64,000 bases of DNA from Xanthomonas fragariae (GTDB lineage Bacteria > Pseudomonadota > Gammaproteobacteria > Xanthomonadales > Xanthomonadaceae), in the NCBI RefSeq assembly GCF_900183975.1, contig NZ_LT853882.1, positions 1,977,501 to 2,041,500 on the forward strand, given 5' to 3'. The notes under the pieces are model-generated. The model was not told where the DNA came from. It ran no database searches and saw only the letters and a program-made list of their open reading frames with translations. The translations under genes were made by a program, and so were the position numbers. Shown in pieces: positions 45,775 through 60,632 of this stretch (the first letter of the stretch is position 1; each line of letters opens with the position of its first letter).

Positions 45775-45788
45775 TGTAAGCGTTTCCA
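45775..45788. promoter_or_regulatory. LacI-type operator 1 upstream of lacI
   Basis: TGTAAGCGTTTCCA matches the LacI/CcpA-family operator consensus TGWNANCGNTNWCA at all but one position. Lies 90 bp before the regulator start and 46 bp (centre to centre) from operator 2. Confidence 0.7.
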
Positions 45789-45820
45789 TGGCGGTCGCAA
45801 CAGGGGTTTACGCTCCTGTG

Positions 45821-45834
45821 TGAAAACGCTTACA
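45821..45834. promoter_or_regulatory. LacI-type operator 2 upstream of lacI
   Basis: TGAAAACGCTTACA fits TGWNANCGNTNWCA perfectly. It is nearly the reverse complement of operator 1 and lies 44 bp before the lacI-like start, suggesting autoregulation, possibly by looping between the two sites. Confidence 0.75.
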
Positions 45835-45877
45835 GTCCGCGCCAGTTGTGGGAACTCGGTCCCAGAGGGTGACACGA

Positions 45878-46900
45878 ATGGCCAAGGGTGCGGTGACCAT
45901 CAAAGATGTTGCTCGGGAAGCACAGGTCTCTGTTGCAACCGTGTCGCGTGCGCTCAATGGTCACCATAACGTTGCCGTGTCGGTGCGCCAGCAGGTGCTC
46001 GAAGTGGCTCAGCGGCTGCGTTACAGCCCCCATGCGGCCGCACGCAGTTTAAGCAGCCGGCGCACGCAGACCCTGGGCGTGGTACTGCCCGACCTGTACG
46101 GCGAGTTCTTTTCCGAATTGATCCGCGGTATCGATGGCGCCGCGCGTGCCGCCGGTCAGTATTTGTTGGTGTCCAGTTATCACGGCGACCCGGAAGCGCA
46201 GGGCAGGGCGCTACGCGCGATGCGCGGACGCGTAGATGGACTGCTGGTGTTGTCGCCGTATGCCGAGCAGCCGGGGTTTCTCACCGACAACCTGCCGCAG
46301 GCGTTGCCGACGGTGCTGATCAACGCGCATCTGCCAGGCGCGGATTACCCGGTATTGAGCATCGACGACCATACCGGCGCAATGACCATGACCGAGCACC
46401 TGCTGCGTGCCGGCCACCGGCGTATCGCCTTCATCGGCGGCCCAGCGCTCAATTTCGATGCACGCGAACGCCTGCGCGGTTTTCGCGATGCGCTCGCTGC
46501 GCATGGCGACCAGGCGCAAGGCATCGAATATCCGGGCGACTTTGATGAAGCCTCTGGTTACCGCGCCGGGCTGGCGATGCTAGCCGATGGCGCGCTGCCC
46601 GATGCGGTGTTCGCCGCCAACGACATGACCGCGCTGGGTTGTCTGTACGCGTTTGCTCAGGCCGACGTGTCGGTGCCCGGCGACGTGGCTCTGGCCGGTT
46701 TCGACGATATTCCATTGGCCCGTTTCGTCCATCCGGCACTGACCACGATGCGGGTCAGCATTGCGCGCCTGGGCGAGCAGGCGATGACCCGGCTGATGCG
46801 GCTGGTGGACCAGCCTGGCTGCGACGACGGAATCCGCCAACTGCTCGCACCCGAGCTGGTGATTCGTGCCTCCTGCGGTGCCGACGAGCCAGGCCCCTGA
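45878..46900 (+). CDS. LacI-family transcriptional regulator of the adjacent glycan locus
   Basis: 340 residues from ATG 45878. HTH and hinge at residues 5-60 (VTIKDVAREAQVSVATVSRA, RQQVLEVAQRLRYSPHAAAR), then a periplasmic-binding-protein-like effector domain (TLGVVLPDLYGEFFSELIRG, HRRIAFIGGPALNFDARERL, DAVFAANDMTALGCLYAF, VPGDVALAGFDDIPLARFVH, PALTTMRVSIARLGEQAMTR). Encoded just before the TonB receptor on the same strand, with operators in front of itself and in front of the glycosidase-ABC operon. Effector likely a sugar released by the locus enzymes. Confidence 0.93.
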   Translation: MAKGAVTIKDVAREAQVSVATVSRALNGHHNVAVSVRQQVLEVAQRLRYSPHAAARSLSSRRTQTLGVVLPDLYGEFFSELIRGIDGAARAAGQYLLVSSYHGDPEAQGRALRAMRGRVDGLLVLSPYAEQPGFLTDNLPQALPTVLINAHLPGADYPVLSIDDHTGAMTMTEHLLRAGHRRIAFIGGPALNFDARERLRGFRDALAAHGDQAQGIEYPGDFDEASGYRAGLAMLADGALPDAVFAANDMTALGCLYAFAQADVSVPGDVALAGFDDIPLARFVHPALTTMRVSIARLGEQAMTRLMRLVDQPGCDDGIRQLLAPELVIRASCGADEPGP

Positions 46901-47018
46901 CCCTGATCCTGATCCTTTTCGCGGGCGGTCTGTCCGCTCCCGTTGCCCCCGAAGTGGTCGTTTCTACAAGACCGCAACGCTACAACACAACACACTGTAC
47001 TGATCCCTGGAGGGACCA

Positions 47019-49997
47019 ATGCGCCACGACCACCCCCATTTCGCCAGTCCGGCGCGCAAGCTGCTCAGCTGCGCCTTGGCCAGTTGTCTTGTCCTTAGCG
47101 CCGCACCCGTGTTCGCGCAGAGCACGGCCGCGACCATCCGCGGCCAAGTCACGGTCGACTCGGCACCTGCGGCCCAGGCCCGAGTCACCGCGACCAATCT
47201 GGCAACAGGCCTGACCCGCACCGTGCAGGTCAGCAACGGCGGCTATTCGGTCGGTGGCCTGCCGCCGGGCGCGTACCGCATCGATGTCACGGCCGACGGC
47301 CAGACCAGCTCGCAAAACGTCACTGTGCAGGTCGGCCAGACGGCAACCTTGAACCTCGGTGTCGGCGGCACCCCGGCCACGGCCGACGGTGGTAAAGCCA
47401 CCACGTTGGACGCGGTGCAGGTAAAGGCGCCGCCGGTGCTGGTCGAAACGCGCACCTCCGAAAACGCCACCTATATTTCCAACGTACAGATCCAGAACCT
47501 GCCGCGTGCCACGCGCAACTTCCTGGAAGTGGCCGACACCGTGCCAAACGTGCAATTCACCCGCGAAGCCAACGGCACCACCAAGGTGCGCTCTGGCGTC
47601 ACCTCGGCCGAAGGCACCAACGTCTACATCGACGGCGTGAGTCAGAAGAACTATGTGCTGACCGGCGGCGTCAGCGGCCAGGATTCCAGCCGCGGCAACC
47701 CGTTCCCGCAGTCGGCGATCGGTGAGTACAAGGTCATCACCTCTAACTACAAGGCCGAGTTCGACCAGGTCAGCGGTGCGGCCATCGTGGCCTCGTCCAA
47801 GTCTGGGACCAACGATTTCCACGGCAGCTTCTTCTGGGACACCAGCAACGACGGCTGGCGCGAGGAAAGCCCGCTGGAAAAGACGGCCGGTGTGCGCGAC
47901 GACTTCAAGGAGACCCAGTACGGCGCCACCTTCAGCGGCCCGATCCTCAAGGACCAGGCGCACTTCTTCATCGCCTACGAGGCCAAGGAATACACCACCC
48001 CGAACGTGGTGATTCCCGGCTCGATCTATTCCGACCGCGTCGATCAGCTGCCCGCGCAGTTGCAGCCGCTGGTGGTCACTTCCAGCACGCCGTTCAAGGA
48101 AGACCTGTATTTCGGCAAGATCGACTGGACCATCGGCGAGAACAGCCTGTTCGAACTGACCGGCAAGTACCGCAAGGAAGATGAGCTCAACGACGTCGGC
48201 GGCACCTCGACCTATGAACACGGCAGCATCAACGGCCAGGAAGAAAAACGCGCCAATCTGCGTTGGCAGTACAGCGGCGCCAACTTCCTCAACGAAGCTA
48301 ACCTGAGCTACGAAAGCGCGTTCTGGAATCAGGCGCCGCTCAACAATGGCAGCGGTTACGTGCTGAGCTACGCGCCGGTGCCCGGAATCGACGATGAAGT
48401 GCTGTCTGCAGGCGCCGGCAGCAGCTTCCAGCGCAAGGGCCAGAAGGGCTCGACCTTACAGGACGACCTGACCTTGAACAGCCTGGACTGGCACGGCGCG
48501 CACACCATCAAAATGGGTGTGAAGTTCAAGAGCATCGATCTGGATTCCACCCAGTTCAACCCGGCCAACCCGCAGTACCACTACAATATCCTCACCGACT
48601 TTGACACGCCGTTCCGGGTGCGCTTCGGTGCGCCGCTGGTCGAAGGCGGCGGTTCGGTGATGTCCAAGAACAAGCAGTACGGCATCTACCTGCAGGACGA
48701 TTGGGAGGTCAACGAGCACTGGACCTTGAACCTGGGCGCGCGCTACGACTACGAAGAAACCCCGGCGTTCCTGGACTTTGTGACCCCGTCCGACATTGCC
48801 GGTGCGCTGCAGAACTGGACCAACCTGCGCAACGCCAACTACGACATCAACAACTTCATCAGCACCGGCAATAACCGCAAGGCGTTCAAGAATGCCTGGC
48901 AGCCACGCCTGGGTGCCTCCTACGACCTGTTCGGGGATCAGGCCCATGTCATCTACGGCGGCGCCGGGCGTGCCTACGACCGCAACATCTTCGATTACCT
49001 GGCGCTCGAGCAGCTCAATAGCTCGTTCAATTCCTATAGCTACTATTTCACCAGCGCCAACAACCCCAACTGCCTGGGCGACCCGTGCACCGCATGGAAC
49101 CCGGCCTACAACACCCAGGAAGGTCTCGATGCGCTGGCGGCGACCAGCAGTGGCGGCGGTGGGCGTGAGATCTATCTGATCGACAACAACATCAAGACTC
49201 CGTACTCGGACCAATTCAGCATCGGCATGCGCAACATGGTGCCGCTGTGGGGCCAGGACTGGTTCACCGATGTGACCTTGAGCCGCATCGAAAGCCATGA
49301 CGGTTTTGCGTTCGTGCGCGGCAACCGTTTGCCGGATGGCTCGTTCTTCGAGCCGGGCACCACCTCCGGCTCGCCGACCGACGGCCCGGACGGCTACAGC
49401 GCCATCGTGCTGGGCATCAATGGTGTGGAAACCCGCAACAATCAGCTCGCCCTGCAGGTCGAAAAGCCCTATGACGAAGAGTCCGGTTGGGGGCTGACCG
49501 TGGCCTACACGTACTCCGACGCCAAGGAAAACCGTCAGTTCGGCGAGCACTACGCCCTGGATCGCGAACGCATCGAAGACTACGGCTGGCGCGAGGCCGG
49601 CGGCATTCCGAAGAACCGCCTGGTGGTCACCGGCATCTACGGGTTGCCGTACGCGATCAAACTGTCCGGCAAGCTGTCGCTGGCCAGCCAGACCGCGCGC
49701 TACGGCCAGAATTGTCTGGCCGGCGACAGGCAGTGCGAGATCATCCAGTTCAAGCCGGACGGTACGCTGGGCTACAAGGAATTCAGCATCGCAGCCAGCA
49801 AAGAATGGGACACCGGTGGAGGTGTTAAATTCAACGTGCGTGCGGATATCCTCAACGTGTTCAATTGGGTGAACTACGCCGAGTTTAACGGCGAGACCGG
49901 GACACTCGGAAACTTGAACACGGCTTACGGCACACCGACCGGTGTGCTGGCGTCGCCGATGCGTACCTTCCGTCTGGCCTTTGGTCTGAACTGGTGA
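47019..49997 (+). CDS. TonB-dependent outer-membrane receptor (carbohydrate, Oar-like with N-terminal carboxypeptidase-like domain)
   Basis: 992 residues, GGAGGG before the ATG. Signal peptide ends PVFAQ (residue 34). A CarboxypepD_reg-like beta-sandwich follows (ATIRGQVTVDSAPAAQARVT to TATLNLGVGG, about 37-117), then a TonB-box-like TLDAVQVKA near 128, a plug (NVQIQNLPRATRNFLEVADT, VYIDGVSQKNYVL, GAAIVASSKSGTNDFHGSFF) and a C-terminal barrel ending in the aromatic FRLAFGLNW. Receptors of this build import large ligands; placement with a LacI gene, glycosidases and a sugar ABC importer points to an oligosaccharide. Preceded by 118 bp with no obvious operator. Confidence 0.92.
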   Translation: MRHDHPHFASPARKLLSCALASCLVLSAAPVFAQSTAATIRGQVTVDSAPAAQARVTATNLATGLTRTVQVSNGGYSVGGLPPGAYRIDVTADGQTSSQNVTVQVGQTATLNLGVGGTPATADGGKATTLDAVQVKAPPVLVETRTSENATYISNVQIQNLPRATRNFLEVADTVPNVQFTREANGTTKVRSGVTSAEGTNVYIDGVSQKNYVLTGGVSGQDSSRGNPFPQSAIGEYKVITSNYKAEFDQVSGAAIVASSKSGTNDFHGSFFWDTSNDGWREESPLEKTAGVRDDFKETQYGATFSGPILKDQAHFFIAYEAKEYTTPNVVIPGSIYSDRVDQLPAQLQPLVVTSSTPFKEDLYFGKIDWTIGENSLFELTGKYRKEDELNDVGGTSTYEHGSINGQEEKRANLRWQYSGANFLNEANLSYESAFWNQAPLNNGSGYVLSYAPVPGIDDEVLSAGAGSSFQRKGQKGSTLQDDLTLNSLDWHGAHTIKMGVKFKSIDLDSTQFNPANPQYHYNILTDFDTPFRVRFGAPLVEGGGSVMSKNKQYGIYLQDDWEVNEHWTLNLGARYDYEETPAFLDFVTPSDIAGALQNWTNLRNANYDINNFISTGNNRKAFKNAWQPRLGASYDLFGDQAHVIYGGAGRAYDRNIFDYLALEQLNSSFNSYSYYFTSANNPNCLGDPCTAWNPAYNTQEGLDALAATSSGGGGREIYLIDNNIKTPYSDQFSIGMRNMVPLWGQDWFTDVTLSRIESHDGFAFVRGNRLPDGSFFEPGTTSGSPTDGPDGYSAIVLGINGVETRNNQLALQVEKPYDEESGWGLTVAYTYSDAKENRQFGEHYALDRERIEDYGWREAGGIPKNRLVVTGIYGLPYAIKLSGKLSLASQTARYGQNCLAGDRQCEIIQFKPDGTLGYKEFSIAASKEWDTGGGVKFNVRADILNVFNWVNYAEFNGETGTLGNLNTAYGTPTGVLASPMRTFRLAFGLNW

Positions 49998-50002
49998 GGT
50001 GC

Positions 50003-50036
50003 TCGACCGCTTTGGCAGCGATGCCAGGGCGGTCGA
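50003..50036 (+). other. Stem-loop between TonB receptor and glycosidase genes
   Basis: TCGACCGC (50003-50010) pairs with GCGGTCGA (50029-50036); inside, TGGCA-GCGA-TGCCA forms an inner helix with a GNRA tetraloop. No T-run follows, so it is not a classical terminator. It may stabilise the receptor mRNA end or attenuate read-through into the glycosidase operon. Confidence 0.5.
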
Positions 50037-50075
50037 ACTTGGCGTTTGGAGAGTAGGGTAAGTTGGCGTGCAAGA

Positions 50076-50089
50076 TGTAATCGATTACA
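50076..50089. promoter_or_regulatory. LacI-type operator before the glycosidase-ABC operon
   Basis: TGTAATCGATTACA is a perfect 14-bp palindrome and a perfect match to TGWNANCGNTNWCA. It sits 14 bp upstream of the ATG at 50104 and could block transcription or read-through from the receptor gene when the repressor is bound. Confidence 0.8.
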
Positions 50090-50103
50090 GAGTTGGGGAG
50101 CGG

Positions 50104-51723
50104 ATGGACAGGGGCAATACGTCGCGTTGGTTGACGATTCCGCTATTGCTGGGCGCGCTGGTGCTGGCGTCGTGCAAACAGGCTGAGCAACCCAAGGTGG
50201 CCGAAAAGAAGGCGCCGGTAAACGTCATCCTGATGGAGGCGCAACTGCCGCCCAAGCCGGTCAAGCCGCCGCTGCCACCGCTGTTTTCGGACATCGAGCG
50301 CCGCACCTTCCAGTTTTTCTGGGATACCGCCAACGAACTCAACGGACTGTCGCCGGATCGGTTTCCGTCGCGCCCGTTCGCCAGCATCGCCTCGGTCGGA
50401 TTTGCGCTCACCGCGTATCCGATCGGTATCGAAAACGGCTGGGTCAGCCGCAATCAGGGGATCGACCGCACCTTGACCACACTGAGGTTCTTTCGCGACG
50501 CGCGGATGGGGCCGCAGCGGACCGGTAGGGCCGGTTACAAGGGCTTCTACTACCACTTTCTGGACATGCAGCAGGGCAACCGGTACGACAGCTGGGTCGA
50601 GCTGTCGAGCGTGGACACCGCAATGCTGATGATGGGCGTGTTGTTCACACAGTCGTATTACGACGGCGAGGACCCGCGCGAAAAAGAAATTCGCCAGATC
50701 GCCGACATGCTGTACAAGCGCGTGGACTGGCGCTGGCTGCAGCAGCGTGCGCCGTTGATCTCGATGGGCTGGTTTCCCGAGAGCGGTTTCATCGATCACG
50801 ACTGGATGGGCTACAACGAGGCGATGATGCTGTACATCCTTGCGCTCGGCTCGCCCACCCACGGGGTCGATCCGGACGCGTGGACCAGCTGGAGCCGCAC
50901 CTACAACAACGACTGGGGCGTGTACCAGGGACAGGAATACCTGTCGTTCGGCCCGCTGTTCGGTCACCAATACAGCCATGTCTGGATCGACTTCCGCGAT
51001 ATCCAGGACCATTACATGCGCGAACACGGCATCGACTACTTCCTCAACAGCCGCCGCGCCACGCTGGCACAGCGCGACTACGCCATCGACAACCCGATGA
51101 AGTGGAAGGACTACGGCGAGAACGTCTGGGGCCTCACCGCCGGCGACGGCCCGCAGAACACCAGTCAGGACTACCGCGGCGAACAGCGCCAGTTCCGGCA
51201 TTATTCCTCGCGCGGCGCCGGCCTGCGCGAGAACTTCGACGATGGCACCATCGTGCCATCTGCGGCAATTTCCTCGATCGTGTTCGCGCCGGAAGTGGTG
51301 ATCCCTGCCACCGAGGAAATGCACAAGCGCTACGGCGACTTCCTGTATTCGAGCTATGGCTTTCTGGATTCGTTCAACCCCAGCTTCAACTACGATATCC
51401 CGCTCAAGACCGGGCGGATGGTGCCCGATCGCGGTTGGGTAGCCAGCGACTACATCGCCATCGATCAGGGCCCGATTCTGGCGATGATTTCCAACTATCA
51501 GAACGAATTCGTCTGGAATGTAATGAAGAAAAACGCTTACATCCGCTCCGGTCTGGAACGCGCCGGTTTTACCGGCGGCTGGCTGACGCACGAAGGCGAG
51601 CCGCAGCCGTTGCCCAAGAAAGATGAGCAGGCCGCCACTGCGCGCGCGCTGGGCATTGCCGAGTCGCGTGCGGCTGCTGCCCAGGCTCAGCACGACCCCT
51701 CGCAAAACTTGAAACCCGAGTAA
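50104..51723 (+). CDS. Lipoprotein glycosidase, GH144/COG5368 (PF10091 'glucoamylase') type
   Basis: 539 residues from ATG 50104 with GGGGAG 4-9 bases upstream. Lipobox LASC gives a lipid-anchored Cys25. After a Pro/Lys linker, the (alpha/alpha)6 catalytic domain runs from about 72 to 500: DIERRTFQFFWDTANELNGL, ASVGFALTAYPIGIENGW, SSVDTAMLMMGVLFTQSYYD, SMGWFPESGFIDHDWMGYNE, GPLFGHQYSHVWIDFRDIQD, TAGDGPQN and YDIPLKTGRMVPDRGWVASD. Characterised GH144 members are endo-beta-1,2-glucanases; COG5368 also occurs in cyclic beta-1,2-glucan synthases. Substrate here is inferred, not shown. First gene of a five-gene unit. Confidence 0.85.
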   Translation: MDRGNTSRWLTIPLLLGALVLASCKQAEQPKVAEKKAPVNVILMEAQLPPKPVKPPLPPLFSDIERRTFQFFWDTANELNGLSPDRFPSRPFASIASVGFALTAYPIGIENGWVSRNQGIDRTLTTLRFFRDARMGPQRTGRAGYKGFYYHFLDMQQGNRYDSWVELSSVDTAMLMMGVLFTQSYYDGEDPREKEIRQIADMLYKRVDWRWLQQRAPLISMGWFPESGFIDHDWMGYNEAMMLYILALGSPTHGVDPDAWTSWSRTYNNDWGVYQGQEYLSFGPLFGHQYSHVWIDFRDIQDHYMREHGIDYFLNSRRATLAQRDYAIDNPMKWKDYGENVWGLTAGDGPQNTSQDYRGEQRQFRHYSSRGAGLRENFDDGTIVPSAAISSIVFAPEVVIPATEEMHKRYGDFLYSSYGFLDSFNPSFNYDIPLKTGRMVPDRGWVASDYIAIDQGPILAMISNYQNEFVWNVMKKNAYIRSGLERAGFTGGWLTHEGEPQPLPKKDEQAATARALGIAESRAAAAQAQHDPSQNLKPE

Positions 51724-51726
51724 TCC

Positions 51727-53073
51727 GTGCGCCTTTTAAAACTGTTGATGATGGCCGTCGCCCTGTGTGCAGGCGCGGCGGGATGTGGACGTTCCGACCC
51801 CGCCAAGACCACGGTGCGCTTCTGGGCGATGGGCAAGGAAGCCGAAGGAGTCGCCGAGCTGGTGCAGGACTTCGAAAAGCAAAACCCCCGCATCCAGGTC
51901 GATGTGCAGAACATCCCGATGACCGCCGCACACGAGAAACTGCTGACCGCCTTCGCCGCCGATGGCCTGCCAGACGTGTGCCAGCTAGGCAATACCTGGC
52001 TGCCGGAGTTTGCGTTGCTGGGCACGCTGGAGCCGATGCAGCCGTACGTGGCGCGCTCCAGGGTCATCGACCCACAGGATTATTTCTCCGGCGTGTGGGA
52101 CACCAATCTGGTCGATGGCACGTTGTACGGAGTGCCGTGGTATGTGGATACGCGGCTACTTTTCTATCGCAAGGATCTGCTGCGCGAGGCCGGCTACAGC
52201 CAGATGCCCAAGACTTGGGCCGAGATGGAGCAGGTGATGGCGGCGATCAAGCGCAAGGTCGGGCCGGGCCGTTACGCCATCCTGATGCTGCTCAACGAGT
52301 TCGAGCCGCAGTTGTCGTTTGAGCTGCAACAGGATGATCGTTTGCTGCGCAACCACGACAGTTACGGCAACTTCCGCGGCGAAGGCTTCCGCAAGGCGCT
52401 GGGCTTCTACGACAACATGTATCAAAAAGACTGGGCGCCGAAGATTTCCGAGAGCCAGTTGTCTAACGTCTGGTACGAATTCTTCAACGGCTATTACGCG
52501 TTCTATCTGTCCGGGCCCTGGAACGTGCGCGAATTCAAGCTGCGCCAGCCGCCGGGCATGGAAGGCAAGTGGGGCACGGCACCTTTGCCGGGTCCCGATG
52601 GGTTGGGCGCCGGTATTGCCGGCGGTTCCAGCCTGGTGATCTTCAAGTCGTCCCAGCACAAGGACGCCAGCTGGAAGCTGATCGAATATCTGTCGCAGCC
52701 GCGGGTGCAGGCGCGCTTCCACGCCATCATCGGAGACCTGCCGCCGCGTCGCAGTACCTGGAAGTTGCCCTCGCTGGCCAACGACGAATTGGCGCATGCA
52801 TTCGGCGATCAGCTGGAGCGGGTCAAGGCCACGCCCAAGGTGTTGGAGTGGGAGCGCATTGTGCAGGAAATGCGCCTGGTGACCGAGCGGGTGGTGCGTG
52901 GAGGTCAATCGCACGAAGCCGCCGTGCAGGAACTGGACAAACGCGTGGACAAGATTCTGGCCAAACGCCGCTGGATTTTTGAGCAGAATCGCGGGCATGT
53001 CAGTCCGGCTGGTGAATCGCCCAAGCCTGCCGCCGCGCCGGCCGCGGCAGCGGGCGAGGGAGCTGCACAATGA
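51727..53073 (+). CDS. ABC transporter sugar-binding lipoprotein
   Basis: 448 residues, GTG start 3 bp after the glycosidase stop. Lipobox GAAGC (Cys20). Family 1 solute-binding fold: TTVRFWAMGKEAEGVAELVQ, FEKQNPRIQVDVQNIPMTAA, LLTAFAADGLPDVCQLGNTW, GTLYGVPWYVDTRLLFYRKD, SGPWNVREFKLRQPPGM, GIAGGSSLVIFKSSQHKDAS. The C-terminus has an unusual Ala/Pro tail (about 30 residues) beyond the normal fold. Delivers oligosaccharide to the two permeases directly downstream. Confidence 0.92.
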   Translation: MRLLKLLMMAVALCAGAAGCGRSDPAKTTVRFWAMGKEAEGVAELVQDFEKQNPRIQVDVQNIPMTAAHEKLLTAFAADGLPDVCQLGNTWLPEFALLGTLEPMQPYVARSRVIDPQDYFSGVWDTNLVDGTLYGVPWYVDTRLLFYRKDLLREAGYSQMPKTWAEMEQVMAAIKRKVGPGRYAILMLLNEFEPQLSFELQQDDRLLRNHDSYGNFRGEGFRKALGFYDNMYQKDWAPKISESQLSNVWYEFFNGYYAFYLSGPWNVREFKLRQPPGMEGKWGTAPLPGPDGLGAGIAGGSSLVIFKSSQHKDASWKLIEYLSQPRVQARFHAIIGDLPPRRSTWKLPSLANDELAHAFGDQLERVKATPKVLEWERIVQEMRLVTERVVRGGQSHEAAVQELDKRVDKILAKRRWIFEQNRGHVSPAGESPKPAAAPAAAAGEGAAQ

Positions 53074-53954
53074 TGAAGCGTAACTCCGTCGCCGGCTGGG
53101 TGTTCGTCGCGCCGTCGATTATGATGCTGGGCATGTTCTTCGGCGTGCCGGTGTTGGCCGCGCTGGTGCTCAGCGTCACCGACTTCGACCTGTACGCGCT
53201 GGCCGACAGCAGCCATCTTCGCTTCGTCGGCCTGGGCAACTACATCGAATTGTTGCGGACGCCGTTGTTCTGGAAGTCGTTGTGGAATACCACCTACTTC
53301 GCGCTGCTTGGCGTGCCGATGTCGATCGGCGTGTCGTTGGGTGCCGCACTGCTGCTCAATGCTAAAGCCTCGCGCTTCAAAGCGTTGTTCCGCACCGCCT
53401 TGTTCGCGCCGGTGGTCACCACGTTGGTGGCGGTGGCGGTGATCTGGCGCTACTTGTTCCATATCAAGTACGGCTTGGTGAACTTCGGCCTGAGCCATCT
53501 GGGGATTCAGCCGATCGACTGGCTGGGCGACCCGCGTTGGGCGATGCCGTCCATCATACTGTTCGCGGTGTGGAAGAACTTAGGCTACAACATGGTGATC
53601 TTTCTGGCCGGCCTGCAGGCGATTCCGCAAGACCTGTATGAGGCTGCGCGCATTGATGGTGCGTCGCGCTGGAAGCAATTCCTGCACATCACCTTGCCGA
53701 TGCTCGGGCCGGTGCTGATGGTAGTCGGTGTGATCACCATCTCCGGCTATTTCCAGCTCTTTGCCGAGCCATACGTGATGACCCGCGGCGACCCGCTGCA
53801 AAGCACCGTGAGCGTGCTGTATTTCATGTTCGAGGAAGGCTTCAAGTGGTGGAACCTCGGCCGCGCCTCGGCGGTAGCGTTCCTGTTGTTCCTGATCATT
53901 CTGGCGGTGACTACCGTGATGCTGCGCTTTGGCCGCAAGAAGGAGCTGATATGA
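53070..53954 (+). CDS. Sugar ABC transporter permease (MalF-type)
   Basis: 294 residues, ATGA overlap with the binding protein; a second ATG follows at once. Six membrane segments; begins RNSVAGWVFVAPSIMMLGMF. The EAA loop is EAARIDGASRWKQFLHITLP, the ATPase-contact site, followed by MLGPVLMVVGVITISGYFQL. Forms the heterodimeric channel with the next gene. Confidence 0.93.
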   Translation: MMKRNSVAGWVFVAPSIMMLGMFFGVPVLAALVLSVTDFDLYALADSSHLRFVGLGNYIELLRTPLFWKSLWNTTYFALLGVPMSIGVSLGAALLLNAKASRFKALFRTALFAPVVTTLVAVAVIWRYLFHIKYGLVNFGLSHLGIQPIDWLGDPRWAMPSIILFAVWKNLGYNMVIFLAGLQAIPQDLYEAARIDGASRWKQFLHITLPMLGPVLMVVGVITISGYFQLFAEPYVMTRGDPLQSTVSVLYFMFEEGFKWWNLGRASAVAFLLFLIILAVTTVMLRFGRKKELI

Positions 53955-54787
53955 GTCGTGATGTTGGCCAATCGCGCTGGCATGCCTTGCTGATCAACGG
54001 CGGCTTGCTGTTGCTGGCACTGATCAGCCTGGCGCCGCTGCTGTGGATGCTGTCGGTCTCGTTAATGCCGACCGGCGAGGCCAGCCGTTTCCCGCCACCG
54101 ATGCTGCCCTCGGCCTTCACCACGGCCAACTACCGCGAACTGTTCGCACGCACCCGCATGGCGCGCAACTTCGCCAACAGCCTGATGGTATCCGGGCTGA
54201 TCACGCTCGGCTCGCTGCTGATCAACACCATGGCCGGTTATGCGTTCGCCAAGCTGCAGTTCGTCGGCCGCGAGCGCATCTTCAAGATCCTGATGGCCGC
54301 GTTAGTGATCCCGGCACAGGTGGCGATGTTGCCGCTGTTCCTGCTGATGAAGCAGTTGCATCTGGTTAACAACATCGGCGGGGTGGTGGTGCCGGCGCTG
54401 GCGACGGTCTTCGGCATTTTTCTGGTACGTCAGTACGCCCGCAGCATTCCCGATGAGCTGATCGAAGCCGCGCGCATCGACGGCGCAAGCGAGATGCGGA
54501 TCTTCTTTCAGATCGTGCTGCCGATGCTCAAGCCGGTGCTAGTTACCTTGTCCATCTTCACCTTCATGGGCTCGTGGAACGACTTCATGTGGCCGCTGAT
54601 CGTGCTGACCGACCAGGAGCAACACACCTTGCCGGTGGCGCTGGCGGCGCTGTCGCGCGAGCACATGATGGACGTGGAATTGATGATGGCTGGCGCGGTG
54701 GTGACGGTGATTCCGGTGCTACTGTTGTTCCTGCTGCTGCAGCGTTACTACATTCAAGGTCTTCTGCTGGGGAGTGTGAAGGGGTGA
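53951..54787 (+). CDS. Sugar ABC transporter permease (MalG-type)
   Basis: 278 residues from ATG 53951 (ATGA overlap). Six membrane segments; EAA loop EAARIDGASEMRIFFQIVLP, then FTFMGSWNDFMWPLIVLTDQ, a CUT1-family hallmark. No gene for the ATP-binding subunit is present in the locus, so a shared MalK/MsiK-like ATPase must be encoded elsewhere. Confidence 0.93.
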   Translation: MSRDVGQSRWHALLINGGLLLLALISLAPLLWMLSVSLMPTGEASRFPPPMLPSAFTTANYRELFARTRMARNFANSLMVSGLITLGSLLINTMAGYAFAKLQFVGRERIFKILMAALVIPAQVAMLPLFLLMKQLHLVNNIGGVVVPALATVFGIFLVRQYARSIPDELIEAARIDGASEMRIFFQIVLPMLKPVLVTLSIFTFMGSWNDFMWPLIVLTDQEQHTLPVALAALSREHMMDVELMMAGAVVTVIPVLLLFLLLQRYYIQGLLLGSVKG

Positions 54788-57700
54788 TGCCGATGATCCG
54801 GGCAGTGCTTTCCATGGCTGCGGTCGCTAGCGTTGCGGGCGTGGCGCAGGCGCAGGAGCGCATGCTCGACGGCTTCGACGACATCGGCGCCTGGCGCTTG
54901 GTGGTCTCCAATCAGGTCAGCGGCTCGCTGCGCCCGGTGGCCACCACTTCTGGCGGACATGCGCTGTGCCTGGACTACAACTTCAACGGCGTGTCCGGTT
55001 ATGTCGGCATCCGTCGCAATTTGCCGATCGAGTATCCTGAAAACTACCGCATCGGCTTCGCGCTGCGCGGCGAGTCGCCGTCCAACGATCTGCAGGTCAA
55101 GCTGATCGATGCCAGCGGCGACAACGTGTGGTGGGTCAACCGGCCGGGCTTTAATTTCCCGAACAACTGGACCACCGTCAGTTACCGCAAGCGCAACATC
55201 GAAAAGGCCTGGGGCCCGGGCCAGGACAAGCAACTGCGCAGCAGCGCGGATGTGGAATTCACCATTTACAACAAGGTCGGTGGCAAGGGCACGGTGTGCT
55301 TCGACCACCTGACCCTGACCCCGCTAGCGCCGGAAGACACCTTGCCGCTCAAGGCCGAGGCCATCACCGATACTGCACCCGCATTGGAACAACGGCTGGC
55401 TGACGGCAAACCGGACACCTTCTGGCTCAGCGGCGCGGTCAAGCAACAGACGGTGACGCTGGATCTGGGCAAGGTGCGCGAATTCGGCGGCGCGGTGGTG
55501 CAGTGGGTGCCGGGCCTGCAGGCCTCCCAGTACACGGTGCGTGCGTCCAGCGACGGACGCGGCTGGCGCGATCTGCGCACCGTCACCGCCGGTGCCGGCG
55601 ACACCGATTGGCTGGCGCTGCCGGATACCGAAGCGCGCTATCTGCGTTTCGATCTCAAGGACGGCCCCAACTGGCGTTACGGCATCAAGGATGTGCAGCT
55701 GCAGCCGCTTGCGTTTGCGGCAACGCCAAACGATTTCATCAAGTCGCTGGCCGCGCAGATGCCTCGTGGCAGTTATCCGCGCGGCTTCTCCGGCGAGCAG
55801 CCGTACTGGACCATTCTGGGTCTTGACGGCGGCACCGAGCAGGGTCTGATCGGCGAAGACGGCGCGGTGGAAGTGGGCAAGGGCGGTTTCAGCATCGAGC
55901 CGTTCGTGGTGACCGGTGGCAAGCTGCTGCATTGGTCCGACGTCAGCAGCGAGCAAGGCCTGCAGGACGATTGCTTGCCAATTCCCAGCGTCGATTGGCA
56001 TCACGATCTGATGAATCTGCGTGTCACCGCATTCGTGCAGGGCACACCCGATCAGGCACAACTGGTCGCACGCTATCAACTGCATAACACCGGCAAGGAA
56101 GCGCGCGACTTCACCCTGGCACTGGCGGTGCGCCCGTTCCAGGTCAACCCGCCAGCGCAGTTGCTGAACACCTTGGGTGGCGTCAGTCGTATCGAGCAAC
56201 TGGCCGTGGATGGCGCGCAGGTCAGTGTCAACGGCAGACCGCGCGTGTTTGCCGCGCAGCGTCCGGATGCCGGTTTCGCCAGCGCTTTCGACAGCGGTAT
56301 GGATGTCAGTCATCTCACTGCCGCCACACCGCCCACGATCACCCAGGTGAAGGACGAAACCGGCCTGGCATCGGGCGTGCTGCTGTATCGCTGGAAGCTG
56401 CAGCCCGGCCAGCGTCGTGAAGTGGCACTGGTGATTCCGCAGACCGGCACGGCGCAGTTGCCAGCAGGTTTCGATGCCGACACGGCGCAGCAACAGGTTG
56501 CCCAGCAGTGGCGCAGCAAGCTCGATCGCGTGCGCATCAGCGTGCCGGCCGAAGGCAAGCCGATGGTCGATACACTGCGTACTGCCCTGGCGCATATGTT
56601 GATCTCGCGCATCGGCCCGCGCCTGCAGCCCGGCACGCGCTCGTATTCGCGCAGCTGGATCCGCGATGGCGCGATGATTTCCGAAGGCCTGTTGCGGCTC
56701 GGCCATGAGGATGTGGTGCGCGAGTACGTGGACTGGTTCGCGTCGTATCAGTTTGCCGATGGCATGGTGCCGTGCTGCGTGGACGATCGCGGCAGCGACC
56801 CGGTGCCGGAAAACGATAGCCATGGCGAGCTGATCTTCAACATCGCCGAGTACTACCGCTACACCGGCGACAAGGCGTTCCTGGAAAAGATGTGGCCGCA
56901 CGTCACCGGCGCCTACGACTACATGGAAAAGCTGCGCGCCAGCGAACGCACCGAAGACAACTTCATGCGCAACCCGGCCTTCTACGGAATGATGCCGGTG
57001 TCGATCAGTCACGAAGGCTATTCGGCCAAGCCGGTGCATTCGTATTGGGACAACTTTTGGGCGTTGCGCGGCTACAAGGACGCGGTGATGCTGGCCGGCG
57101 CGCTCAACAAGCCCGACGACGTTACCCGTTTCACTGCCGCACGCGATGAGTTCAGCGGCGATCTGATCGCTTCGCTAGGTGCGGCCGTGCGTCAGCACAA
57201 CCTCGCTTTTCTGCCCGGTTCGGCCGAGCTCGGCGATTTCGACGCGACCTCCACGACCATCGCATTGGCCCCGGGTGGCGAGCAGCAACGTCTGCCGCAA
57301 GACCTGCTGACCAATACCTTCGAGCGCTATTGGAAGGAGTTCTCCGATCGTCGCGACAGCAAGCGCGAATGGAAGGTCTACACGCCGTACGAGTGGCGAA
57401 ATGTGGCTGCATTTGTGCGCCTTGGCTGGCGCGACCGCGCCTGGGACGCCACCGCGTTTTTCTTCAAGGACCGTGCACCGCAACCGTGGAATCAGTGGAC
57501 CGAAGTGGTCTCACGCACACCGCGCACACCGTTCTTTGTCGGCGACCTGCCGCATGCCTGGGTTGCCTCGGACTTCGTGCGCTCAGTGCTTGACATGTTT
57601 GCCTATGGGCGCGAATCCGATGCCAGCCTGGTGATCGCCGCGGGCGCGCCGACGCGCTGGTTCGAAGGCAAGGGCATTGGCATCGCCGAACTGCGCACGC

Positions 57701-57951
57701 CGTACGGGCGCCTCAACTACACCTTACAGCGTGCCGACAAGCAACTGGTATTGCAGCTGCAGCCCGGCCTGATCCTGCCGCCGGGCGGCGTGGTGTTGCC
57801 CTGGCCTTACCAGGGCACGCCGGGCAAGGCCAGCATCAACGGCGAGTCGGCTGAGTGGCATAACGGTGAGCTACGCATCCAGCAACTGCCTGCCAACGTG
57901 CAGATCGATGTGCCCAGCGCGGTGCGGCGCGCCGAGCGCGCCACGCAATGA
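54787..57951 (+). CDS. Secreted 1054-residue enzyme: discoidin module plus (alpha/alpha)6 glycoside hydrolase-like domain
   Basis: ATG 54787 overlaps the permease stop (TGATG). Signal peptide MPMIRAVLSMAAVASVAGVA-QA. Residues ~25-200 form a carbohydrate-binding-like beta-sandwich (ERMLDGFDDIGAWRLVVSNQ; FDHLTLTPLAP), ~205-310 an F5/8 type C (discoidin) module (EQRLADGKPDTFWLSGAVKQ, YTVRASSDGRGWRDLRTVT, YLRFDLKDG), and ~590-960 a helical toroid (SYSRSWIRDGAMISEGLLRL, YQFADGMVPCCVDDRGSDPV, NDSHGELIFNIAEYYRYTGD, WKVYTPYEWRNVAAFVRLGW) resembling GH15/GH63/GH94-like folds. RDGAM and DSHGE carry candidate acid residues. Specific GH family not assigned; acts presumably in the periplasm on the imported glycan. 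Confidence 0.8.
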   Translation: MPMIRAVLSMAAVASVAGVAQAQERMLDGFDDIGAWRLVVSNQVSGSLRPVATTSGGHALCLDYNFNGVSGYVGIRRNLPIEYPENYRIGFALRGESPSNDLQVKLIDASGDNVWWVNRPGFNFPNNWTTVSYRKRNIEKAWGPGQDKQLRSSADVEFTIYNKVGGKGTVCFDHLTLTPLAPEDTLPLKAEAITDTAPALEQRLADGKPDTFWLSGAVKQQTVTLDLGKVREFGGAVVQWVPGLQASQYTVRASSDGRGWRDLRTVTAGAGDTDWLALPDTEARYLRFDLKDGPNWRYGIKDVQLQPLAFAATPNDFIKSLAAQMPRGSYPRGFSGEQPYWTILGLDGGTEQGLIGEDGAVEVGKGGFSIEPFVVTGGKLLHWSDVSSEQGLQDDCLPIPSVDWHHDLMNLRVTAFVQGTPDQAQLVARYQLHNTGKEARDFTLALAVRPFQVNPPAQLLNTLGGVSRIEQLAVDGAQVSVNGRPRVFAAQRPDAGFASAFDSGMDVSHLTAATPPTITQVKDETGLASGVLLYRWKLQPGQRREVALVIPQTGTAQLPAGFDADTAQQQVAQQWRSKLDRVRISVPAEGKPMVDTLRTALAHMLISRIGPRLQPGTRSYSRSWIRDGAMISEGLLRLGHEDVVREYVDWFASYQFADGMVPCCVDDRGSDPVPENDSHGELIFNIAEYYRYTGDKAFLEKMWPHVTGAYDYMEKLRASERTEDNFMRNPAFYGMMPVSISHEGYSAKPVHSYWDNFWALRGYKDAVMLAGALNKPDDVTRFTAARDEFSGDLIASLGAAVRQHNLAFLPGSAELGDFDATSTTIALAPGGEQQRLPQDLLTNTFERYWKEFSDRRDSKREWKVYTPYEWRNVAAFVRLGWRDRAWDATAFFFKDRAPQPWNQWTEVVSRTPRTPFFVGDLPHAWVASDFVRSVLDMFAYGRESDASLVIAAGAPTRWFEGKGIGIAELRTPYGRLNYTLQRADKQLVLQLQPGLILPPGGVVLPWPYQGTPGKASINGESAEWHNGELRIQQLPANVQIDVPSAVRRAERATQ

Positions 57952-58085
57952 GAGTGGTGCGTCGTGTGGCCGAGCCGTCCGCACGACGTGTTGCGCGCTT
58001 GTTTGTATGGTCGGTCGCGCTTGCGCTGTCGTGCGTGGCATTTGCACAGAAACGCAAACCTCTGCAGCGCCTGCACGTCAGATGA
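57948..58085 (+). pseudogene. Truncated next gene of the glycan operon (signal peptide only)
   Basis: An ATG overlapping the stop of the 1054-residue enzyme (ATGA) opens a frame MRVVRRVAEPSARRVARLFV-WSVALALSCVAFAQ, a convincing basic-plus-hydrophobic signal peptide, followed by 11 further codons and a stop at 58085, ten bases before IS copy D. The overlap style matches the rest of the operon, so a secreted enzyme (in analogous loci often a GH3 beta-glucosidase; this is inference) was lost to IS insertion. Confidence 0.55.
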
Positions 58086-58094
58086 GCCTGGCTA

Positions 58095-59047
58095 GGCGCC
58101 CCTGAAAAATCCTTAACACCCAACCACCGCAACGCTTTATAGGCTGCACAGGCGTGCCAGATCTGACGGTTTTCGCTACGCTGAGGCCTGCTTTCTTGCA
58201 ATTTGCGCCCATGCGTACACGTCGTTCTGCTGCTGAGCGCGTCTGCGCCGACGAGTTGTTTCGTTCGCGACTGGAGAATCAGATCGACCTTGCGTCGTCC
58301 GATGGCGCAGCTGAGCCAACGGATGCCGTGGACCGCGTTGGAACAGGCGCTTTTGTCGCGCTTGCCGGCCACTGCTGCCGCTGGCGGTCGTCCCTCACTG
58401 CCAGTGCGTTTGATGGCAGATTTGCTTTATCTCGAGCATGCATACGACCTGTCCGATGAAGCGGTCTGCGAACGATGGATGGAAAATCCGTATTGGCAGT
58501 TCTTCGCATGCGCCGGAAGTGGACTGCATCGGCAAGGGCAAAGCGCGTCAGCCGTACGCATTCGGCGTCAAGGTCGGTATTGCAGTCAGCGCCTGCAATG
58601 GGAGCGCGCAGTTTTTCGGGCAATCCGTATGACGGGGACACCTTGGTCGAGCAACTGGAGCAGACGCGCGGGTTGTGGGCATCCAACCAACCGTGGCGAT
58701 CGTTGATTTGGACTATCGCGGGCGCGAGATGGATGACGTGCGGGTGTTGCATCGTGGCAAGGCCAAGACCCTGACGCGACGGCCATGGCGCTGGATCGAA
58801 CGACGTCAGGCAGTGGAACCGGTGACCGGGCATCTGAAAGAAGACTGCCGGCTGCGTCGTTGTAGGCTCAAAGGCGCCTAGGGCGATGCGCTGCACGTGC
58901 TTGGTTGCGCCGCCGGCTACAACCTGCGTTGGCTGATGCGCTGGATCGCGTTTTTGCATGCCTGGATCTGGCCATCCTTGAGCAACGTGCACCTATCACC
59001 TATCACCGCTGGCGATTGGTGCTTGAAAGGGGTTTTTCAGGGACGAC
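58095..59047 (+). mobile_element. IS5-family element, copy D (old, degenerate)
   Basis: Ends GGCGCCCCTGAAAAATCC and GGGGTTTTTCAGGGACGAC match the other copies but the body differs at many positions, unlike copies A, B, C and E which look nearly identical to each other. 953 bp, about 550 bp shorter than an intact element. Flanking hexamers (TGGCTA / CGGTAA) do not match. It represents an earlier wave or a related subfamily. Confidence 0.88.
58154..59026 (+). pseudogene. Transposase relic of IS copy D
   Basis: N-terminal part (QRMPWTALEQALLSRLPATA, DLLYLEHAYDLSDEAVCERW) breaks off after NPYWQFF near 58505 and joins directly to the C-terminal half (GVKVGIAVSACNG, KTLTRRPWRWIERRQAVEPV), with additional frameshifts and a stop in LKGA at 58879. 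The middle third, including the first catalytic Asp, is gone. Confidence 0.88.
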
Positions 59048-59127
59048 CGGTAACGCTCAACCTGCATTTCCTCCAACAGCAAACAGGCACCGGTAGCAAT
59101 CGCCGACGATTTCAACACCGCTGCTTA
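59048..59127 (+). pseudogene. Endonuclease/exonuclease/phosphatase-family relic, part left of IS copy E
   Basis: The 80 bp between copies D and E read VTLNLHF in one frame and QAPVAIADDFNTAAY in another; the latter resembles the (G)DFN active-site motif of the EEP family. The same gene continues at 60639 beyond copy E. The 5' part has been removed together with the region now occupied by copy D. Confidence 0.5.
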
Positions 59128-60632
59128 GTCGTCCCTGAAAAATCCCCTTCAAGCGCCAAGTGCCGTCGGTGACAGCGGCGCGGTACTCAAGGATGACCAT
59201 CCCATCGCCCGCATCCAGGCACGCAAAAACGCGATCCAGCGCAGCAGCCAGCGCAGGTTGTAGCCGGCGGCGCAGCCGAGCACGTGCAGCGCATCGCCTT
59301 GGGCACCTTTCAGCCTGCAGCGACGCAACCGGCAGTCGTCTTTCAGATGTCCGATCACCGGCTCCACCGCCTGCCGTCGCTTGATCCAGCGCCATTGCCG
59401 TCGCGTCAGGGTCTTGGCCTTGCCGCGATGCAGGACCTGCACGCCATCGACCGCGCGCCCGCGATAGCCCAGGTCCACGATCGCCACCGTCGGTTCTACG
59501 CTCACATCCTGCAGCAACCCGCGTGTCTGCTCCAGCTGCTCGGCCAAGGTATCGCCGTCGTACGGGTTGCCCGGGAAGCTGCGCGCACCCACGACCAATC
59601 CCTTGCAGGCGGTGACCGCAATGCCGACCTTGACGCCGAATTCGTACGCTTGACGCGCCTTGCCCTTGCCGATGCATTCCACTTCCGGGGCATGCAATGC
59701 GTAGAGTTTTTGTTTGTCCTTCGGACGCTGCGTGTACAGCCGTTGCGCACGTTCCAGCCAGACAGCGATGCGCTCGCGCACGCCGGGTTCCACCTGGTCC
59801 AGCTTGCGCTCGATATCGCGCAACACCCGCCCCAATACCGTGCGTTGACGTCGCAGCACGCGCTGCATGCGCTTGAACTGGCGCGCATGCGCATACCGAC
59901 CTGCCTTGCGGCTCAGGGCCGGGCCTTGCCGCGCGTAGCTCTGCCGCAATCCGATGCCGTGCCGCCTGGCCACTAAAACCAGCTTCTTGCGTGCCACCTC
60001 CAGCAAACGGCTGTCGGTCGGATAGGCGATCGCCTTCTCTTGCACCGTGGTGTCCACGATCACCCGCGACAACTCGCGTGCGTCCACCGCCTGCATCGCA
60101 TGCGCGGCGTTGATGGTGTGCGCCAGCAGCTCTTCCATCCCGGCCTCACCCAGGCGCTGCCGCCAGCGCGTCAGCGAGCTGGCATCGCACGGCAAACGCG
60201 TCTGGAACACGACCTCACCGGTGAAGAACTGCCAGTACGGATTCTCCAGCCAGCGCTCGCACACCGCTTCATCGGACAGGTCGTAGGCGTGTTTGAGGTA
60301 GAGCAAACCGGCAATCAGCCGCACCGGCAATGCCGGCCGACCGCCACCGGCCTGGGTGGCCGGCAAGCGCGATGAAAGTGCTTGCTCCAACGCCGTCCAC
60401 GGCATCCGTTGGCTCAGCCGCGCCAGCGGATGACGCAGATCGATCTGGTTCTCCAGCCGCGATCGAAACAACTCATCGGCAGGCATGTCTTCGGCAGCAG
60501 GACGGCGTGTACGCATGGGCGGAAATTGCCAGAAACCAGCCTTCAGCGTAGCGAACACTGGTAGTTTTGGCACGCCGGTGCAGACATCAAGGCCTTGCGG
60601 TCGTTGGGTGGTTGGGGTTTTTCAGGGGCGAC
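59128..60632 (-). mobile_element. IS5-family element, copy E (intact, with perfect target duplication)
   Basis: 1505 bp, ends GTCGTCCCTGAAAAATCCCC and (right) GGGGTTTTTCAGGGGCGAC. Flanked by TGCTTA at 59122-59127 and 60633-60638, an exact 6-bp target duplication, so this is a recent simple insertion of a complete element. Same orientation as copy B, 34 kb away. Confidence 0.96.
59149..60573 (-). CDS. IS5-family transposase (copy E)
   Basis: 474 residues, uninterrupted, differing from copy B by scattered substitutions (for example GFWQF, EDMPADELF, SQRMPWTAL, LRDIERKLDQVEPGVRERIA). Same architecture: DUF772-type N-terminus, Asp in VIVDTTVQEKAIAYPTD, Asp in VAIVDLGYRGRAVDGV, and KRRQAVEPVIGHLKDDCRL near the C-terminus. 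Probably functional. Confidence 0.94.
   Translation of the reverse strand: MPKLPVFATLKAGFWQFPPMRTRRPAAEDMPADELFRSRLENQIDLRHPLARLSQRMPWTALEQALSSRLPATQAGGGRPALPVRLIAGLLYLKHAYDLSDEAVCERWLENPYWQFFTGEVVFQTRLPCDASSLTRWRQRLGEAGMEELLAHTINAAHAMQAVDARELSRVIVDTTVQEKAIAYPTDSRLLEVARKKLVLVARRHGIGLRQSYARQGPALSRKAGRYAHARQFKRMQRVLRRQRTVLGRVLRDIERKLDQVEPGVRERIAVWLERAQRLYTQRPKDKQKLYALHAPEVECIGKGKARQAYEFGVKVGIAVTACKGLVVGARSFPGNPYDGDTLAEQLEQTRGLLQDVSVEPTVAIVDLGYRGRAVDGVQVLHRGKAKTLTRRQWRWIKRRQAVEPVIGHLKDDCRLRRCRLKGAQGDALHVLGCAAGYNLRWLLRWIAFLRAWMRAMGWSSLSTAPLSPTALGA

What the first reader, a model, noticed from the sequence alone, without database searches (positions are those of the whole stretch)
45775..58085. 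Complete outer-membrane-to-cytoplasm glycan utilisation locus, plausibly for beta-1,2-glucan
One strand carries, in order, a LacI regulator, a 992-residue TonB receptor, a GH144/COG5368-type lipoprotein, a sugar-binding lipoprotein, two CUT1-type permeases, and a 1054-residue discoidin/toroid enzyme, with 4-bp overlaps from the binding protein onward. This would import a large glucan through the outer membrane, cut it in the periplasm and import the products by an ABC importer. Known GH144 enzymes act on beta-1,2-glucan, the backbone of bacterial osmoregulated periplasmic and cyclic glucans, which are themselves plant-interaction factors. A Xanthomonas scavenging or remodelling such glucans in planta would be notable. 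Substrate is inference.
Basis: partly seen in the sequence, partly recalled or inferred. Interest (0 to 1): 0.7.

Follow-up and report, generated by a model that had tools for sequence, protein, structure and literature searches.

The report
Beta-1,2-glucan uptake operon with detached ATPase
This is a plant-associated bacterium's gene set for taking in and cutting up beta-1,2-glucan, a sugar polymer that Xanthomonas itself makes during plant infection; the missing motor protein of the importer appears to sit elsewhere in the genome under the same switch.

Summary
The lipoprotein is the ortholog of XcSGL (XCC2207, PDB 8XUL), a published GH144 beta-1,2-glucanase, and keeps E239, F286 and Y367. 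The binding protein matches 'Xac-MalE' (3UOR, ligand unknown); the next PDB match is the Listeria beta-1,2-gluco-oligosaccharide binder Lin1841 (223 bits; next 128), so 'MalE' is probably a misnomer. The locus is not complete: it has no ATPase. The genome's only MalK-type ATPase lies about 0.6 Mb away, behind a LacI-type operator like the three in the locus, divergent from Entner-Doudoroff genes. Of 60 family genomes, 29 have this ATPase full length, all among the 30 with the GH144 gene; the two genes lie within 20 kb in 24 of 29, and the operator precedes the ATPase in 26 of 30. The 1054-residue enzyme has CBM-like domains and a six-hairpin barrel; its sequence leans weakly to GH15 alpha-glucosidases and its substrate is unknown. 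Boldest open reading: it cuts the alpha-1,6 closure of the cyclic glucan that this genome's own OpgD should make. Uptake, regulation and in-planta scavenging are untested.

The parts
45775..45788 (.). LacI-type operator O1 (TGTAAGCGTTTCCA), upstream of lacI
   Evidence: 1 mismatch to TGTAANCGNTTACA; a site of at most 1 mismatch lies within 400 bp upstream of lacI in 72 of the 73 named loci in which lacI was found
45821..45834 (.). LacI-type operator O2 (TGAAAACGCTTACA), upstream of lacI
   Evidence: 1 mismatch; two sites also upstream of lacI in the same-genus locus L125
45848..46900 (+). LacI-family regulator (likely start ATG 45878); predicted repressor of the locus and of the distant ATPase
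   Evidence: PF13377 E 6e-38, PF00356 E 1e-14; start by reading
47019..49997 (+). TonB-dependent-receptor-like outer-membrane barrel with an N-terminal CarboxypepD_reg extension; no Pfam plug match
   Evidence: PF25183 E 1e-47, PF00593 E 1e-14, PF13620 E 1e-11
50076..50089 (.). Perfect palindromic LacI-type operator O3 (TGTAATCGATTACA), 14 bp upstream of the GH144 start codon
   Evidence: The only exact match in the genome; same position in the close relatives L087 and L088
50104..51723 (+). GH144 endo-beta-1,2-glucanase, predicted lipoprotein (LASC lipobox, by eye), ortholog of XcSGL/XCC2207
51727..53073 (+). Solute-binding lipoprotein (lipobox by eye), ortholog of PDB 3UOR 'Xac-MalE'; predicted beta-1,2-gluco-oligosaccharide binder
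   Evidence: 897 bits to 3uor, 223 to Lin1841 (5ysb), next 128; 132 of 385 residues identical to Lin1841
53070..53954 (+). MalF-type ABC permease
   Evidence: PF00528 E 9e-20
53951..54787 (+). MalG-type ABC permease
   Evidence: PF00528 E 2e-21; start codon ATG 53951 by reading
54787..57951 (+). 1054-aa protein with signal peptide (by eye): N-terminal beta-sandwich (CBM11-like in some relatives), discoidin domain, beta-sandwich and (alpha/alpha)6 barrel; weak GH15-type profile match; substrate unknown

Best explanation
The locus is a beta-1,2-glucan utilisation system. A TonB-type receptor takes beta-1,2-glucan (linear or cyclic) across the outer membrane (inferred). The GH144 lipoprotein cuts it in the periplasm into short gluco-oligosaccharides (activity shown for the ortholog XcSGL; cellular place inferred from the lipobox). 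The lipid-anchored binding protein hands these to the MalFG-type permeases (inferred from similarity to Lin1841). The importer is powered by an ATPase encoded about 0.6 Mb away (inferred: the only MalK-type ATPase found in the genome, co-inherited with the GH144 gene and preceded by the same operator). A LacI-family repressor controls lacI and the receptor, the GH144-to-enzyme operon and the ATPase (inferred from operators). The oligosaccharides would be finished in the cytoplasm, perhaps by the signal-less GH3 beta-glucosidase at C1:295 kb, and the glucose sent into the zwf-glk-edd-eda pathway whose genes lie next to the ATPase (inferred). The 1054-residue enzyme probably cuts a linkage that GH144 leaves, identity unknown.
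For: GH144; XcSGL biochemistry in PMC12102758 (sections 2.1, 2.2 and the first part of 2.3; passages and sections 3.2-3.3). Binding protein; 3UOR ligand given as 'Unknown' in PMC7676653 Table 3 (passage). ATPase: one PF17912 match in the genome. In 60 family genomes 29 have a full-length ATPase of at least 63% identity, all 29 among the 30 with the GH144 gene; the 30th has a partial 56% match (Fisher p 5e-16, kinship ignored). By the places the two genes lie within 20 kb on one contig in 24 of 29. Operator: at most 1 mismatch within 300 bp upstream of the ATPase in 26 of 30 loci, against 0.003 expected in base shuffles and 0 of 30 in the 300 bp downstream. zwf, glk, edd, eda next to the ATPase. 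A GH1 beta-glucosidase gene lies in the neighbourhood in 10 of 27 loci scanned, and G378 has LacI-GH144-SBP-MalF-MalG-enzyme-ATPase with a GH1 gene alongside.
Against: The binding protein is only 34% identical to Lin1841 and its sugar-contact residues were not checked (the Lin1841 paper is not held). The receptor has no Pfam plug match. The operator is a generic LacI-type palindrome: about 2.9 sites of at most 1 mismatch are expected in the genome by base composition (62.2% G+C assumed) and 6 were found, so the sites at C1:605273 and C1:2833237 may be chance. Only 13 of 30 family GH144 genes carry the site within 300 bp. Two of 30 GH144 genomes lack the 1054-aa enzyme. No induction or uptake data were found. 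The GH3 is one of five PF00933 matches and scores lower with Lin1840 (528 bits) than with other beta-glucosidases (586).
Confidence: 0.8

Rival explanations
1. It is a maltose/trehalose (mal) operon, as the name 'Xac-MalE' of the orthologous 3UOR structure implies, and GH144 is a side activity.
For: [quoted passage not shown] NCBIfam shows MalE, MalF and MalG matches, all far below cut-off.
Against: 3UOR is an apo structure with ligand listed as Unknown. Lin1841 scores 223 bits against 128 for the acarbose/maltose binder GacH and 81 for the trehalose/maltose binder 1eu8. Xanthomonas has a separate maltose locus: XCC2469, the one receptor gene listed as induced by maltose in X. campestris pv. 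campestris (PMC1790865 passages), and a separate starch locus XAC2595-2602 with an MFS carrier in X. citri (PMC10714752 passages). XcSGL had no detectable activity on soluble starch.
Confidence: 0.06
2. The locus mainly recycles the bacterium's own cyclic osmoregulated glucan rather than scavenging foreign glucan.
For: The genome's one MdoG-family match is an XccOpgD ortholog (1172 bits) with W76, D343, D379 and R477 kept, so it should make the alpha-1,6-cyclised 16-mer. All 13 of 60 family genomes with a close OpgD (at least 60% identity) also have the GH144 gene and the 1054-aa enzyme; 12 of these 13 keep W76, D343 and R477, L142 has W at 477. A GH144 enzyme, CpSGL, together with a beta-glucosidase was applied to the cyclic product on TLC (PMC11228985 legend; the outcome itself was not seen).
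Against: 12 of the 30 GH144-positive family genomes have no OpgD match, so self-recycling cannot be the general role. A TonB-type receptor suggests an outside source.
Confidence: 0.3
3. The 1054-residue enzyme is an exo-acting beta-1,2-glucosidase or a phosphorylase that finishes the oligosaccharides in the periplasm.
For: [quoted passage not shown]
Against: No GH94 profile match at E 0.01 in any of 43 relatives, whereas 37 of 43 match the glucoamylase-type profile TIGR01577. If it made glucose in the periplasm, the oligosaccharide importer beside it would have less to do. Fold alone does not decide: GH65, GH15, GH116 and GH94 all score alike.
Confidence: 0.3

Closest known systems
XcSGL (XCC2207, GH144, PDB 8XUL) of X. 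campestris pv. campestris
   Same: Ortholog; clan-defining residues kept at the same numbers
   Different: The paper treats the enzyme alone; in the passages and sections I read its operon is not described
Listeria innocua lin1839-lin1841 cluster
   Same: ABC-transporter binding protein for beta-1,2-gluco-oligosaccharides (Lin1841), the closest ligand-known PDB relative of the one here, with a GH3 beta-glucosidase (Lin1840) (PMC12369401 passages)
   Different: Gram-positive, so no outer-membrane receptor; lin1839 is, by recall, the phosphorylase SOGP rather than a GH144; whether it has a relative of the 1054-aa enzyme was not looked at
CUT loci of Xanthomonas (sucrose, maltose, xylan)
   Same: TonB-type receptor beside degradative enzymes, inner-membrane transporter and sugar regulator (definition in PMC1790865 passage)
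   Different: ABC importer; receptor without a recognised plug; ATPase in trans; this locus is not named in the passages I read
GH15/GH65 alpha-glucosidases (glucodextranase 1ug9, dextran dextrinase 9ju0, alpha-1,2-glucosidase 7fe3)
   Different: About 12% identity, family cut-off not reached, extra N-terminal CBM-like domains; substrate unknown
3UOR 'Xac-MalE'
   Same: Ortholog of the binding protein (897 bits)
   Different: Name implies maltose; evidence here points to beta-1,2-gluco-oligosaccharides

Membership tests
GH144 (SGL clan) | PF10091 / relation to assayed GH144 enzymes | tested here: met
   E 2.1e-89; XcSGL 1170 bits, CpSGL 5gzh 148 bits
GH144 (SGL clan) | E239, F286, Y367 (XcSGL numbering) | tested here: met
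   All three at identical positions (residues from PMC12102758)
GH144 (SGL clan) | Hydrolysis of beta-1,2-glucan | not testable with these tools
   Shown for the ortholog only
CUT locus | Receptor gene beside degradative enzymes, inner-membrane transporter and sugar regulator | tested here: met
   definition
CUT locus | Canonical TonB-dependent receptor with plug domain | tested here: inconclusive
   Barrel matches, no Pfam Plug match listed even at E 10; a divergent plug is not excluded
CUT1-type ABC importer | Binding protein plus two permeases | tested here: met
CUT1-type ABC importer | Cognate MalK-type ATPase | tested here: inconclusive
   Absent from the locus; the single candidate found lies about 0.6 Mb away; pairing inferred from co-inheritance and operator
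Lin1841-type Sop-binding proteins | Closest ligand-known relative by sequence among PDB chains | tested here: met
   Second only to the ligand-unknown ortholog 3uor; 223 bits against 128 for the next
Lin1841-type Sop-binding proteins | Conserved sugar-contact residues | not tested
   Paper not held
Maltose (MalE) binding proteins | NCBIfam MalE equivalog cut-off | tested here: not met
   42.7 bits against 291 required
GH15 | Profile match of the 1054-aa enzyme over the catalytic domain | tested here: inconclusive
   TIGR01577 35.5 bits against 820.7 required, residues 619-722 only; 37 of 43 relatives match at E 0.01, but 29 of 43 also match the alpha-L-rhamnosidase six-hairpin profile PF17389; no Pfam GH15 match listed
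GH15 | Two catalytic glutamates | tested here: inconclusive
   E743 and E906 are invariant in 74 sequences; their role is guessed from recalled motifs, no structural overlay was made
GH94 | Profile match | tested here: inconclusive
   No profile match at E 0.01 in 43 relatives, but GH94 folds rank high

The most novel reading that the evidence does not exclude
[quoted passage not shown] The locus plus the distant ATPase would then be a dedicated turnover system by which Xanthomonas takes back or remodels its own immune-suppressing glucan (cyclised by OpgD) and feeds the glucose to the Entner-Doudoroff pathway under one LacI switch.
Probability: 0.2. Interest if true: 0.82.

Novelty: new variant of a known kind. 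Interest (0 to 1): 0.56.

Why it matters
The alpha-1,6-cyclised beta-1,2-glucan is reported as an immune-avoidance and infection factor of X. campestris, and the enzyme that closes the ring was reported in 2024 (PMC11228985, passages). How the glucan is turned over or taken up was not described in the papers my searches found. This locus offers a concrete degradation and uptake route, a probable correction of the 'MalE' label on a solved structure, a predicted partner ATPase in trans, and an enzyme of unassigned family in most copies of the locus. Each can be tested with purified proteins.

Tried and rejected
Rejected: mal operon reading (see rivals). Rejected: a strict tie between the 1054-aa enzyme and self-made cyclic glucan: it is present in 13 of 13 genomes with a close OpgD but also in 15 of the other 17 GH144-positive genomes, so this does not discriminate. 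Rejected as evidence: naming the enzyme's chemistry from its fold, since GH65, GH15, GH116, GH78 and GH94 structures all rank high. Tried: a GH1 finishing enzyme in the own genome: no match. The beta-1,2-specific Streptomyces GH1 (8KAP, 9U98) is not among the 60 of 193 PDB rows shown for the relatives' GH1, so its specificity stays open. Tried: contexts of the paralogs of the 1054-aa enzyme at 33-34% identity (metallo-beta-lactamase fold, EAL, transporter genes): uninformative. The two further operator hits were looked at: one lies 76 bp upstream of the likely start of a class I fructose-bisphosphate aldolase, one between the 3' ends of two genes; both may be chance. My first two operator scans mis-oriented some loci; only, with the strands, is used. 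Its shuffles keep base composition only. Papers on Lin1841 and on 3UOR were not held. That I found no description of the locus as a whole rests on searches in an open-licence library only, and I looked into only some of the papers listed.
Full report
WHAT IS THERE. The window holds, on the + strand, lacI (45848 or 45878-46900), a TonB-type receptor (47019-49997), a GH144 lipoprotein (50104-51723), a binding lipoprotein (51727-53073), two permeases (53070-53954 and 53951-54787) and a 1054-residue enzyme (54787-57951), all open and with the expected Pfam domains. PF10091 matches once in the 4.33-Mb genome. SBP/MalF and MalF/MalG overlap by 4 bp; MalG and the enzyme overlap by one base; GH144 and SBP are 3 bp apart. 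Lipoboxes and the enzyme's signal peptide are read by eye.

THE GH144 STEP IS NO LONGER A GUESS. The protein aligns without gaps over 520 residues to XCC2207/XcSGL, PDB 8XUL (1170 bits). In PMC12102758 (sections 2.1, 2.2 and the first part of 2.3; passages and sections 3.2-3.3) XcSGL hydrolyses beta-1,2-glucan alditol at 3.85 U/mg and shows no detectable activity on the other glycans assayed; xylan was not examined for it. The residues that define the clan, E239, F286 and Y367, stand at the same numbers in the window protein.

THE BINDING PROTEIN. Its best PDB match is 3UOR, 'Xac-MalE' (897 bits); the next is Lin1841 of Listeria innocua (223 bits), a binder of beta-1,2-gluco-oligosaccharides, then GacH (128) and, lower, the trehalose/maltose protein 1eu8 (81). 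Identity to Lin1841 is 132 of 385 residues. PMC7676653 lists the specificity of 3UOR as Unknown (passage). X. campestris has a different, maltose-induced receptor locus (XCC2469, PMC1790865 passages), and X. citri a separate starch locus with an MFS carrier (PMC10714752 passages). XCC2208 is listed in PMC1790865 as lacking a canonical plug domain. It is not among the receptors that the passage names as induced by polygalacturonate, maltose, arabinose, xylan or xylose, though I did not see whether its mutant was tested. That XCC2208 is the ortholog of the receptor here rests on its number next to XCC2207, not on an alignment.

THE MISSING ATPASE. The genome has one PF17912 (MalK-type) match, an ATPase at C1:2637339-2638424, about 0.6 Mb from the locus, divergent from zwf, with glk, edd and eda following. 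Among 60 genomes of the family, 30 have the GH144 gene (E up to 1e-30) and 37 have some match to the ATPase (E up to 1e-60). Of the 37, 29 are full length at 63% identity or more, and all 29 are GH144-positive. The 30th GH144 genome (fragmented, 87% complete) has a partial 56% match. The other seven genomes, with matches of 40-44%, are GH144-negative. The places put the two genes within 20 kb on one contig in 24 of 29. The exceptions are the two genomes of the window's own genus (about 0.6 Mb and 71 kb apart) and three in which they lie on different contigs. Fisher p is 5e-16, without correction for kinship.

A SHARED SWITCH. A LacI-type palindrome, TGTAANCGNTTACA with at most one mismatch, occurs at 6 places in the genome (reversed-pattern control: 1); base composition predicts 2.9. 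Three are in the locus (45775, 45821 and the exact copy at 50076) and one lies 115 bp upstream of the ATPase start and 267 bp upstream of zwf. Of 30 ATPase loci in the family, 26 carry the site with at most 1 mismatch and 27 with at most 2 within 300 bp upstream, against 0.003 and 0.1 expected in shuffles and none in the 300 bp downstream; of 30 GH144 genes 13 carry it. In the 80 named loci 72 of 73 lacI genes have it within 400 bp and 60 of 80 GH144 genes within 300 bp. The genomes are related, so these are not independent trials, and LacI-family palindromes resemble each other.

FINISHING THE SUGAR. Ten of 27 neighbourhoods scanned hold a GH1 beta-glucosidase gene (some stretches end too early to tell). 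In G378 the cluster is LacI-GH144-SBP-MalF-MalG-enzyme-ATPase with a GH1 gene alongside. The window's genome has no GH1 match but five PF00933 matches. One, at C1:295 kb, has no signal peptide by eye and matches beta-glucosidases including Lin1840 (528 bits, its best being 586).

LINK TO THE OWN CYCLIC GLUCAN. The one MdoG-family match is an ortholog of XccOpgD, PDB 8X18 (1172 bits), with W76, D343, D379 and R477 kept, residues named in PMC11228985 (passages) for making the alpha-1,6-cyclised 16-mer. OpgD occurs in 20 of 60 family genomes, 18 GH144-positive and 2 negative; 12 of 30 GH144-positive genomes have no OpgD match. So the system cannot in general be for self-recycling, but in Xanthomonas both halves are present.

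VERDICT. New here: the candidate ATPase in trans and its operator, the probable misnaming of Xac-MalE, and an unassigned enzyme in most copies of the locus. Shown: homology, gene order, co-inheritance, operator-like sites. Inferred: transport, regulation, compartment, product fate. I rate it a new variant of CUT loci and beta-1,2-glucan clusters.

Noticed in passing
G000:C1:2638540 (L037:10541-10554): The LacI-type operator of the ATPase lies in the intergenic region shared with zwf, so the same regulator might also touch the Entner-Doudoroff genes.
   Followed up: partly
G000:C1:605273 (L054:6274): A one-mismatch LacI-type site lies 76 bp upstream of the likely start of a class I fructose-bisphosphate aldolase gene; may be chance.
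   Followed up: partly
window 58203-60573: Insertion-sequence-like transposase reading frames (a 474-aa frame on the - strand at 59149-60573 and a shorter related piece from 58203 on the + strand) follow the operon; called by eye.
   Followed up: no
L192: A record titled Bacillus subtilis SK7B5 carries this operon with a GH144 gene 79% identical to the window's, among Stenotrophomonas records in the list; probably mislabelled or contaminated.
   Followed up: no
G000:C1:107866-108711 (L007): A GH3 gene match with an in-frame TAA, apparently a decaying copy.
   Followed up: no
L020-L023: Paralogs of the 1054-aa enzyme at 33-34% identity sit elsewhere in several family genomes, beside a metallo-beta-lactamase-fold gene in L029; function unknown.
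   Followed up: partly
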